Below, piece by piece: positions 51,221-53,497 of a stretch of DNA of 64,000 nucleotides (the first letter of the stretch is position 1; each line of letters opens with the position of its first letter). The position numbers and the translations under genes are program-made. Source of the stretch: Lachnospiraceae bacterium. Its GTDB lineage: Bacteria > Bacillota > Clostridia > Lachnospirales > Lachnospiraceae. Location: contig SVFH01000003.1 in NCBI GenBank assembly GCA_015056945.1, positions 1 through 64,000 of the forward strand, given 5' to 3'. The notes below the pieces were generated by a model. That model did no database searches. It worked only from the letters and a program-made list of their open reading frames with translations, and was not told the origin of the DNA.

Positions 51221-51249
51221 TTGCCGAAACGAACATTTGTTTGTATAAT
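51221..51249 (+). promoter_or_regulatory. Promoter of the radical SAM repair cassette
   Basis: TTGCCG - 17 bp - TATAAT. Confidence 0.75.
51230..51243 (+). promoter_or_regulatory. LexA/DinR box 1 (inside the promoter spacer)
   Basis: CGAACATTTGTTTG, matches the Firmicute CGAAC-N4-GTTYG form. Confidence 0.85.
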
Positions 51250-51255
51250 CAAAAC

Positions 51256-51269
51256 AGAACATTTGTTTG
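51256..51269 (+). promoter_or_regulatory. LexA/DinR box 2 (weaker match, near +1)
   Basis: AGAACATTTGTTTG, 26 bp downstream of box 1. Confidence 0.65.
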
Positions 51270-51282
51270 GAGGGTATATGAG

Positions 51283-52725
51283 ATGTTTGAACTTCAGAAG
51301 GAGAAATCAATAGAAGATAAGCTTGCTATTCTGGCTGATGCAGCGAAATATGATGTTGCATGTACGTCAAGCGGAGTTGATCGTAAAGGAAAGAAAGGAT
51401 ATCTGGGAAACAGTGTGGCAGCAGGCGTATGTCATTCTTTTGCGGCAGACGGACGTTGTATTTCCCTTCTGAAAATACTGATGACAAATCATTGTATTTA
51501 TGACTGCAAATATTGTATCAACCGTTGTAGCAATGAAGTGGAGCGGGCGACTTTTACACCGGATGAAATCTGTACCTTAACGATGGAGTTTTACCGTAGA
51601 AATTATATCGAAGGGTTGTTTTTAAGCTCAGGAATTATCCGTTCGCCGGGCTACACGATGGAAAAGATGTGTGAAACATTGTGGTTGCTGCGCAATAAAT
51701 ATAAATTTAACGGGTATATTCATCTGAAGGCAATTCCGGGAGCACCGGATGAGCTGTTGACTCTGGCTGGTTATCTTGCAGACCGTATGAGCATTAATCT
51801 CGAGCTTCCAACGAAAGAAAGCCTGCAGCGACTGGCTCCGAATAAGAATTTTAACAGCATATTGAAGCCGATGGGGAAATTAACCGATACAATCGCAGCT
51901 CACAGACTTGCCGTCGGAAAGGACGCAAGGATGGAGAGAAGCAGCGGAAACAGGTATTTGGAGAATAGTATTTTTCACAATGATAAGCTGGAAGATTCCA
52001 TGAGAACACGGAATGCATTCTTACCTTCTGTCGGGAAGAATGAGCAAATGCAAAGACCGTTTGCGCCTGCGGGACAGAGTACACAGATGATAATCGGCGC
52101 GAGCGGGGAATCGGATTTTGACTTAATGAGAACAACACAGCAGTTGTATCGTTCGTATGACTTGAAACGAGTCTTTTTTTCGGCATATGTTCCTATCAAT
52201 GAGGATTCTTCTTTGCCCGCCCTTGGAACACCACCGCCGCTTTTACGAGAACACAGACTATATCAGGCGGACTGGTTGCTGCGTTTTTACGGATTTCATG
52301 CAGAAGAACTTCTTTCTATGGAAAAGCCGAATTTTCACACGGAGCTTGATCCGAAATGTGACTGGGCAATCAGGCATCTCGGACAGTTTCCGGTTGAAAT
52401 TATGAAAGCACCGTATGATGTGCTTTTGCGGGTGCCGGGGATTGGACCGACAAGCGCCAAACGGATTGTGCAATCAAGACGTCACGGAACATTGTCTTTT
52501 GAAATGTTAAAGAAGATGGGAGTGGTTTTGAAACGTGCGCACTATTTTATTACTTGCGCGGGAAAGATGATGTACAAGATTCCGATTGAAGAACACTATA
52601 TCATGTCACAGCTATGTGCGGATAACAGGAACGAGAACTGGGAGCTGGCGCATAAGCAGGATTTCAAACAGATGTCTTTGTTTCAGGATTTTGCCGTGTC
52701 ACAGAACCGGATTGCAACGGGTTAA
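51283..52725 (+). CDS. Putative DNA modification/repair radical SAM protein (TIGR03916-like) with C-terminal HhH
   Basis: Radical SAM CIYDCKYC; HhH LLRVPGIGPTSAKRIVQSRR; start refined to ATG 51283 (track start lies in the repeat). Confidence 0.88.
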   Translation: MFELQKEKSIEDKLAILADAAKYDVACTSSGVDRKGKKGYLGNSVAAGVCHSFAADGRCISLLKILMTNHCIYDCKYCINRCSNEVERATFTPDEICTLTMEFYRRNYIEGLFLSSGIIRSPGYTMEKMCETLWLLRNKYKFNGYIHLKAIPGAPDELLTLAGYLADRMSINLELPTKESLQRLAPNKNFNSILKPMGKLTDTIAAHRLAVGKDARMERSSGNRYLENSIFHNDKLEDSMRTRNAFLPSVGKNEQMQRPFAPAGQSTQMIIGASGESDFDLMRTTQQLYRSYDLKRVFFSAYVPINEDSSLPALGTPPPLLREHRLYQADWLLRFYGFHAEELLSMEKPNFHTELDPKCDWAIRHLGQFPVEIMKAPYDVLLRVPGIGPTSAKRIVQSRRHGTLSFEMLKKMGVVLKRAHYFITCAGKMMYKIPIEEHYIMSQLCADNRNENWELAHKQDFKQMSLFQDFAVSQNRIATG

Positions 52726-52738
52726 AAGGGGGAAGCAT

Positions 52739-53497
52739 ATGTTTTATTATACTTGCGAACCTGATTCTGCTGCGATGTTCACGTGCATTTATGAAGCATG
52801 GGCAAGCGGAAAGGGTCATCATAACATCAGGCTGTGCGTTGAGCCTGTGGAGCAATATACACTGTTTGATACATATATTCATGTGGATGCGGATGAGAGT
52901 AAGGCGGAGAAGGTGGTGCGGACATTGCAGACGCAACTGTCACATGCGTTCTTCGAGGAGATTTCATTTGTGACACTGTCTGCACAGGAAGATGCACTTG
53001 ATACTATTTATCGTGTAATGATTCTCGGGTTTGCATTCGGACCGAAGGCGCTTGAAATGTACCAGTATAAGGAGGTGGTCCGCTTCTGGGAAATACGTAA
53101 GAGAGTAAAGAGGGAAGTTCATCTTTTTCCCGAATTTCTGCGTTTTGTATCGTTGGAAGGAGGTCTTTTGCTCGGGCATTTCGAACCGCGGGACAGAGTA
53201 TTGATTCCGGTTTCATGGGCTTTTGAAGACAGAATGCCGTCTGAAAACTGGATGATTGTGGACGATGTGCACCGCATGGCCGTGGTTCATCAGGCAGACA
53301 AAGAATCCGTACTGCGTATTCTTACGGATGAAGAATTTGAGAAATTGTGTGAGGCAGAGCGGTATAAGGATGATTTCACAAAGCGCTGGCAAATCTTTTT
53401 TGAACATATTGCAATCAGGGAGCGGGCGAACAGCAGATGTCAGCAAACGCTTTTTCCGAAGTGGATGCGTAAACATGTTACGGAGTTTCAGAAGTAA
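52739..53497 (+). CDS. TIGR03915-like putative DNA repair protein, partner of the radical SAM gene
   Basis: FYYTCEPDSAAMFTCIYEAW start, RFVSLEGGLLLGHFEPRDRVLIPVSWAFEDRMPSENWMIVDDVHRMA; start refined to ATG 52739 after AAAGGGGGAAG. Confidence 0.85.
   Translation: MFYYTCEPDSAAMFTCIYEAWASGKGHHNIRLCVEPVEQYTLFDTYIHVDADESKAEKVVRTLQTQLSHAFFEEISFVTLSAQEDALDTIYRVMILGFAFGPKALEMYQYKEVVRFWEIRKRVKREVHLFPEFLRFVSLEGGLLLGHFEPRDRVLIPVSWAFEDRMPSENWMIVDDVHRMAVVHQADKESVLRILTDEEFEKLCEAERYKDDFTKRWQIFFEHIAIRERANSRCQQTLFPKWMRKHVTEFQK

What the first reader, a model, noticed from the sequence alone, without database searches (positions are those of the whole stretch)
51221..53497. LexA-box-controlled radical SAM DNA-repair cassette
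Seen: a promoter TTGCCG-17-TATAAT whose spacer is filled by CGAACATTTGTTTG, with a second AGAACATTTGTTTG 26 bp downstream near the expected +1. This drives a radical SAM/HhH protein and a partner resembling the TIGR03916/TIGR03915 pair. Known: CGAAC-N4-GTTYG is the LexA/DinR box of Firmicutes, and these two families are annotated as putative DNA repair/modification with little biochemistry. Inference: a DNA-damage-inducible two-protein repair pathway.
Basis: partly seen in the sequence, partly recalled or inferred. Interest (0 to 1): 0.8.

Follow-up and report, generated by a model that had tools for sequence, protein, structure and literature searches.

The report
LexA-controlled radical SAM DNA-repair pair
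A gut bacterium of the family Lachnospiraceae carries a two-gene cassette under the SOS (DNA-damage) repressor's operator: a radical SAM enzyme that looks built to dock on the replication clamp, plus a partner of unknown chemistry; the SOS control is very likely real and was already predicted in other bacteria, while what the enzyme does to DNA is still unknown.

Summary
TTGCCG-17-TATAAT lies at 51221-51249. A LexA-type box fills the spacer (51230-51243) and a second lies at 51256-51269. They are the only two GAAC-N4-GTTYG sites on the 137-kb contig, and a matrix trained only on relatives' lexA promoters ranks them first and second in the window. The genes are TIGR03916 (radical SAM + HhH) and TIGR03915 (DUF4130).

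LexA control is strongly supported by comparison: 36/46 relatives carry the box, against 6/1015 control windows. Twelve of 12 alphaproteobacterial copies carry the alpha-type box and 2/2 betaproteobacterial copies the beta/gamma-type box. The same genome has the box at recA and uvrB. The two genes occur in exactly the same 22 of 61 genomes.

None of this is new in kind: LexA control was predicted for the Clostridium acetobutylicum pair in 2013, and for COG1573-COG4277 operons elsewhere.

What I add: a conserved QLSLF-type sliding-clamp motif in the enzyme's disordered tail; three extra invariant cysteines before the radical SAM cluster; no conserved cysteine after it, arguing against a spore-photoproduct-lyase mechanism. 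"Repair" remains an inference; the substrate is unknown. No lexA gene was found in this 88%-complete assembly.

The parts
51111..51141 (+). terminator-like hairpin that separates the cassette from the gene upstream
   Evidence: 14 pairs, T tail; consensus match only
51221..51226 (+). -35 hexamer TTGCCG
51230..51243 (+). LexA box 1, CGAACATTTGTTTG, inside the promoter spacer
51244..51249 (+). -10 hexamer TATAAT
51256..51269 (+). LexA box 2, AGAACATTTGTTTG, at the expected +1
   Evidence: the same 14-mer occurs in a relative's lexA promoter (L068)
51269..51274 (+). ribosome-binding site GGAGGG
   Evidence: sequence
51283..52725 (+). radical SAM protein, 480 aa, TIGR03916 (rSAM_link_UDG)
51361..51459 (+). 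span of three extra invariant Cys (C27, C50, C59) and H51: possible auxiliary Fe-S or Zn ligands (inference)
   Evidence: invariant in 26 sequences from three phyla
51493..51516 (+). radical SAM cluster motif C71-x3-C75-x2-C78
52414..52485 (+). helix-hairpin-helix (YDVLLRVPGIGPTSAKRIVQSRRH), predicted non-sequence-specific DNA binding
52669..52683 (+). QMSLF, predicted sliding-clamp-binding motif in the disordered C-terminal tail
52739..53497 (+). partner protein, 252 aa, TIGR03915 / DUF4130

Best explanation
This is an SOS-regulon operon. LexA sits on two operators, one across the promoter spacer and one at the start point, and blocks transcription. When RecA on single-stranded DNA triggers LexA self-cleavage, both genes are made (inferred from conserved operators). 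The radical SAM protein binds DNA through its HhH and is brought to damaged or stalled replication sites by its QMSLF tail binding the sliding clamp (predicted). There a [4Fe-4S]-generated 5'-deoxyadenosyl radical attacks a damaged or abnormal nucleotide (inferred). The DUF4130 protein is its obligate partner, probably for recognising or handing over the lesion; in alpha- and betaproteobacteria it is fused to UdgX, which binds uracil in DNA, suggesting a uracil-like or base-loss substrate (inferred). The exact reaction is unknown.
For: Operator. Conservation of the box upstream of the gene: 36/46 Lachnospiraceae against 6/1015 control windows; 11/11 same-family genomes, and at order level 4/6 with lexA and 1/5 without. 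Same box at recA (double box, 27 bp apart), uvrB and a dinG-like helicase in the same genome. Cross-phylum: GAAC-N7-GAAC 17-42 bp upstream of the matched start in 12/12 alphaproteobacterial copies (control 1/488 windows); CTGT-N8-ACAG in 2/2 betaproteobacterial copies (0/488). Pair: exactly the same 22 of 61 genomes; no third conserved neighbour in 49 loci. HhH. Clamp motif: strict in 108/120 close homologues (shuffled tails: 2.1) and in 30/39 further proteins from other genera and phyla; the tail is predicted disordered; consensus QL[S/D]LF from PMC3919608. UdgX fusion.
Against: No expression, binding or enzyme data. No lexA gene was found in the window's own assembly, although 24 of 30 same-genus relatives have one and the assembly is 88% complete. 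The Lachnospiraceae partner has no UDG domain, and the genome's two UDG-family proteins are ordinary Ung and hypoxanthine-DNA glycosylase, not UdgX, so the uracil link is indirect. The clamp motif is a five-residue match, untested. Acinetobacter, Spirosoma and Parabacteroides copies have none of the operators tested.
Confidence: 0.62

Rival explanations
1. It is a spore-photoproduct-lyase (SplB)-like direct photolesion reversal enzyme, as the label 'SplB-like' in the literature implies.
For: PMC3765255 describes DUF4130 as associated with SplB-like radical SAM photolyases; it is a radical SAM enzyme with a DNA-binding motif under SOS control.
Against: No cysteine after the CX3CX2C cluster is conserved, whereas SPL uses a conserved downstream Cys as hydrogen donor (my knowledge). 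The AlphaFold model's best 50 solved matches include HydE, ThiH, LipA, MiaB, RlmN and biotin synthase; SPL is not among them. The organisms here are mostly gut anaerobes with little UV exposure.
Confidence: 0.1
2. It introduces a protective or marking modification (for example methylthio or sulfur insertion) into DNA, tRNA or another target made during stress, rather than repairing lesions.
For: Three extra invariant cysteines N-terminal to the radical SAM cluster, and fold neighbours LipA, MiaB and biotin synthase, which carry auxiliary clusters. The family is named 'modification/repair'.
Against: The extra-Cys region is modelled with low confidence (residues 25-49, pLDDT < 50), so a cluster is not shown. 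HhH, clamp motif and UdgX fusion point to DNA lesions.
Confidence: 0.2
3. The boxes are chance or serve another repressor, and the cassette is not SOS controlled in this organism because lexA has been lost.
For: No lexA in the assembly by family model or by a relative's protein. Seven of 31 genomes of the genus, this one included, show none.
Against: All seven assemblies are 69-91% complete; the lexA-flanking integrase found in two relatives has no close counterpart here or in G001, which fits an unassembled region (or loss of the whole region). Intact boxes stay at recA and uvrB here; after lexA loss they would be expected to decay.
Confidence: 0.05
4. The cassette is a mutagenesis or damage-tolerance factor that makes or processes a substrate for SOS translesion polymerases at the clamp, rather than an error-free repair enzyme.
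For: DUF4130 was predicted to be mutagenesis-related (PMC3765255); clamp motif as in polymerases; SOS timing.
Against: No polymerase is linked to the cassette in 49 loci.
Confidence: 0.15

Closest known systems
CAC3343-CAC3344 of Clostridium acetobutylicum (PMC3828012)
   Different: Different family of Clostridia; the clamp motif and cross-phylum operators were not discussed in the passages read
COG1573-COG4277 'UDG base excision repair' operon of Bacteroidetes, Verrucomicrobia and Alphaproteobacteria (PMC8565304)
   Same: COG4277 is, to my knowledge, the same HhH radical SAM family; predicted SOS regulated
   Different: There the partner carries a uracil-DNA glycosylase domain; here DUF4130 stands alone
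NCBIfam TIGR03916 / TIGR03915 pair
   Same: Both proteins far above cut-off
   Different: Nothing; a regular member
DUF4130-UdgX fusion proteins of alpha- and betaproteobacteria
   Same: Follow the same radical SAM gene and a LexA box
   Different: UdgX domain absent in the window protein
Spore photoproduct lyase (SplB)
   Same: Radical SAM enzyme linked to SOS and DNA repair
   Different: No conserved downstream cysteine; HhH and clamp motif; not among the closest folds

Membership tests
TIGR03916 (rSAM_link_UDG) | Score above the curated cut-off over the full model | tested here: met
   679 bits against 343.5, positions 1-415 of 415
TIGR03916 (rSAM_link_UDG) | CX3CX2C cluster motif and HhH | tested here: met
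   C71, C75, C78 invariant; PGIG hairpin conserved; Pfam HHH_3 below its gathering score
TIGR03915 / DUF4130 | Score above cut-off; located next to a TIGR03916 gene | tested here: met
   210 bits against 112; 13 bp downstream; co-occurs in the same 22 of 61 genomes
LexA (SOS) regulon | Operator of the host's LexA in the promoter, conserved in relatives | tested here: met
   other operator types in proteobacteria
LexA (SOS) regulon | lexA gene present in the same genome | tested here: inconclusive
   not found in the 88%-complete assembly, present in 24 of 30 same-genus relatives
LexA (SOS) regulon | Induction by DNA damage and LexA binding | not testable with these tools
   needs RT-qPCR and EMSA
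Sliding-clamp client | QL[S/D]LF-type motif in an exposed segment | tested here: met
   QMSLF at 463-467; conserved across phyla; predicted disordered
Sliding-clamp client | Binding to DnaN | not testable with these tools
   needs pull-down, SPR or crystal structure
Spore photoproduct lyase | Conserved hydrogen-donor Cys downstream of the cluster | tested here: not met
   no invariant or nearly invariant Cys after C78 in 26 sequences
UdgX uracil-DNA binding proteins | UDG-fold domain | tested here: not met
   only DUF4130 found in the window protein; fused in the alpha/betaproteobacterial copies seen
DHH phosphoesterase superfamily (for DUF4130) | Fold similarity | tested here: inconclusive
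   PDB and viral libraries both put DHH proteins first, E 1e-4 and 2e-4, but TM-score of at most 0.40
DHH phosphoesterase superfamily (for DUF4130) | DxD and DHH metal motifs; profile similarity | tested here: not met
   motifs not conserved; hhalign probability at most 4.4%

The most novel reading that the evidence does not exclude
A widespread, uncharacterised DNA-repair pathway: an SOS-induced, clamp-tethered radical SAM enzyme with an auxiliary metal cluster repairs or converts a uracil-like or abasic lesion in DNA together with a catalytically dead DHH-fold partner, which some bacteria have fused to the uracil-DNA binder UdgX.
Probability: 0.25. Interest if true: 0.85.

Novelty: new member of a known kind. 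Interest (0 to 1): 0.5.

Why it matters
The pair is widespread (Bacillota, Proteobacteria, Bacteroidota and others) and has no reported biochemistry that I found. Showing that different lineages put it under LexA with different operator sequences makes a DNA-damage role very likely. The clamp motif gives a concrete place of action (the replication or repair clamp) and a simple mutational test. The three extra cysteines give a second test, by iron count and EPR.

Tried and rejected
DUF4130 tail motif (QQTLF here; QRNLF in relatives) as a second clamp motif: it is limited to close relatives (47 of 120) and in other phyla the same segment reads xMPxRYW, so it was dropped. DUF4130 as an active DHH phosphoesterase: metal motifs absent, no profile support. 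SPL-like mechanism: no downstream Cys. Third operon partner: none recurs beyond antisense artefacts and scattered unrelated genes. Phage carriage: the phage-collection hits are unannotated faecal scaffolds or 240-kb Acinetobacter records, probably bacterial DNA. A longer ORF start at 51163 was rejected because it lies upstream of the promoter. My working note counted 13 alphaproteobacterial copies; the correct number is 12.

Full report
OBSERVATION. The sequence is as described. TTGCCG (51221-51226) and TATAAT (51244-51249) are 17 nt apart; CGAACATTTGTTTG (51230-51243) fills the spacer; AGAACATTTGTTTG (51256-51269) follows 26 bp later at the expected transcription start. A GGAGGG site and ATG 51283 follow. 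The radical SAM gene ends at 52725 and the partner runs 52739-53497. A terminator-like hairpin at 51111-51141 lies upstream. The promoter hexamers alone are not more than chance in this AT-rich stretch. The boxes are: GAAC-N4-GTTYG occurs 31 times in the 2.70-Mb genome, and the only two on this 137-kb contig are these. A matrix trained only on boxes from relatives' lexA promoters gives 21.7 and 19.0 bits here and at most 11.9 anywhere else in the window.

IDENTITY. Protein 1 is TIGR03916 (679 bits) and protein 2 is TIGR03915/DUF4130 (210 bits). The window lies in G000, a 48-contig assembly, 88% complete. The nearest named relatives are Lachnospiraceae. TIGR03916 (above cut-off) and TIGR03915 occur in exactly the same 22 of 61 related genomes. 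Within the genus the pair is patchy (7 of 31). In 49 Lachnospiraceae loci only these two genes recur (47 and 46 loci); no third partner does.

REGULATION. Three independent lines of evidence. (a) Same genome: the box also stands before recA, there as a double box 27 bp apart, and before uvrB, a truncated uvrB copy and a dinG-like helicase (these genes were named by reading their translations). (b) Close relatives: 36 of 46 named loci carry GAAC-N4-GTTY in the 300 bp upstream, against 6 of 1015 control windows. In whole genomes it is 11 of 11 in the family; further out, 4 of 6 genomes with lexA and 1 of 5 without. The lexA promoters of relatives carry the same motif wherever enough upstream DNA was available. 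These sequences are related, so the Fisher p value overstates the evidence. (c) Other phyla: 12 of 12 alphaproteobacterial plasmid copies carry GAAC-N7-GAAC 17-42 bp upstream of the matched start (1 of 488 control windows), and 2 of 2 betaproteobacterial copies carry CTGT-N8-ACAG (0 of 488). That different lineages arrived at LexA control of the same gene through different operator sequences is the strongest argument. Acinetobacter, Spirosoma and Parabacteroides copies show none of the motifs tested. In G047, which has no canonical LexA hit, a gene encoding an HTH-S24 (LexA/UmuD-like) repressor stands directly upstream of the radical SAM gene.

MISSING LEXA. lexA was not found in this assembly by family model or by a relative's protein. 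Of the 30 same-genus relatives 24 have it; those without are 69-91% complete. The integrase gene that flanks lexA in two relatives has no close counterpart here. An assembly gap is the simplest reading; loss of the whole region is not excluded.

MECHANISM. Shown by sequence: CX3CX2C (71-78), an HhH (about 378-401), three further invariant cysteines (27, 50, 59) and His51 across three phyla, and no conserved cysteine after the cluster. The AlphaFold model (pLDDT 77) matches HydE, ThiH, LipA, MiaB, RlmN and biotin synthase best; spore photoproduct lyase is not in the top 50. New here, as far as I could see: the C-terminal tail, predicted disordered, holds QMSLF (463-467). The pattern Q-x-[SDTNAG]-L-[FWIL] is in 108 of 120 close homologues (2.1 in shuffled tails) and strictly in 30 of 39 further proteins from other genera, families and phyla; most of the rest have near variants such as QLQLL or QLSLGF. 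The established clamp-binding consensus is QL[S/D]LF (PMC3919608). I infer that the enzyme is held at the sliding clamp. The partner's model (pLDDT 86) resembles DHH phosphoesterases in two libraries, but weakly (TM at most 0.40), without their metal motifs or profile similarity; this is only a lead. In alpha- and betaproteobacteria the partner is fused to a UDG-family domain, mostly annotated as UdgX. The host here has ordinary Ung and a hypoxanthine-DNA glycosylase, no UdgX. The best reading is SOS-induced, clamp-tethered radical chemistry on an abnormal nucleotide, with DUF4130 helping lesion recognition. Substrate and product are not shown.

KNOWN OR NEW. LexA control of this pair is already in the literature as prediction: CAC3343-CAC3344 in Clostridium acetobutylicum (PMC3828012) and the COG1573-COG4277 operon in Bacteroidetes, with earlier reports cited there for Verrucomicrobia and Alphaproteobacteria (PMC8565304). 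That COG4277 equals this family is from my own knowledge. DUF4130 was called mutagenesis-related in 2013 (PMC3765255). The window copy is therefore a new member of a known kind. The clamp motif and the extra cysteines are, to my knowledge, unremarked; the paper search was limited to open-licence texts.

VERDICT. Observation confirmed; regulation very likely (about 0.95); DNA-repair function plausible (about 0.6); precise reaction unknown.

Noticed in passing
L024 1133-1507 (-), G000:C26 about 81 kb: A truncated uvrB copy (124 aa) with its own LexA box, besides the uvrB at L023 (the G000:C26:42666 site). Pseudogene or frameshift not resolved.
   Followed up: no
L011, recA promoter of the window's genome: recA has the same two-box layout as the cassette (27 bp apart against 26).
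   Followed up: partly
L088 (G047:C15): An HTH-S24 (LexA/UmuD-like) repressor gene lies directly upstream of the radical SAM gene in a genome without a canonical LexA hit; its DUF4130 partner is on another contig.
   Followed up: partly
window 52739-53497: The DUF4130 model resembles DHH-superfamily phosphoesterases in the PDB and viral libraries, weakly and without catalytic motifs.
   Followed up: partly
window 53657-58249: A 1530-aa protein with a signal-like start, an E/S-rich stretch, what looks like a CAP/SCP-type domain and repeat domains: probably a large secreted surface protein. The antisense ORFs at 53568-54162 look like artefacts of its repetitive codons.
   Followed up: no
window 58433-60811: ORF that reads as a FeoA-FeoB ferrous iron transporter fusion, by eye only.
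   Followed up: no
L099 3248-4687: The radical SAM gene of one Lachnospiraceae MAG has an internal stop or frameshift.
   Followed up: no
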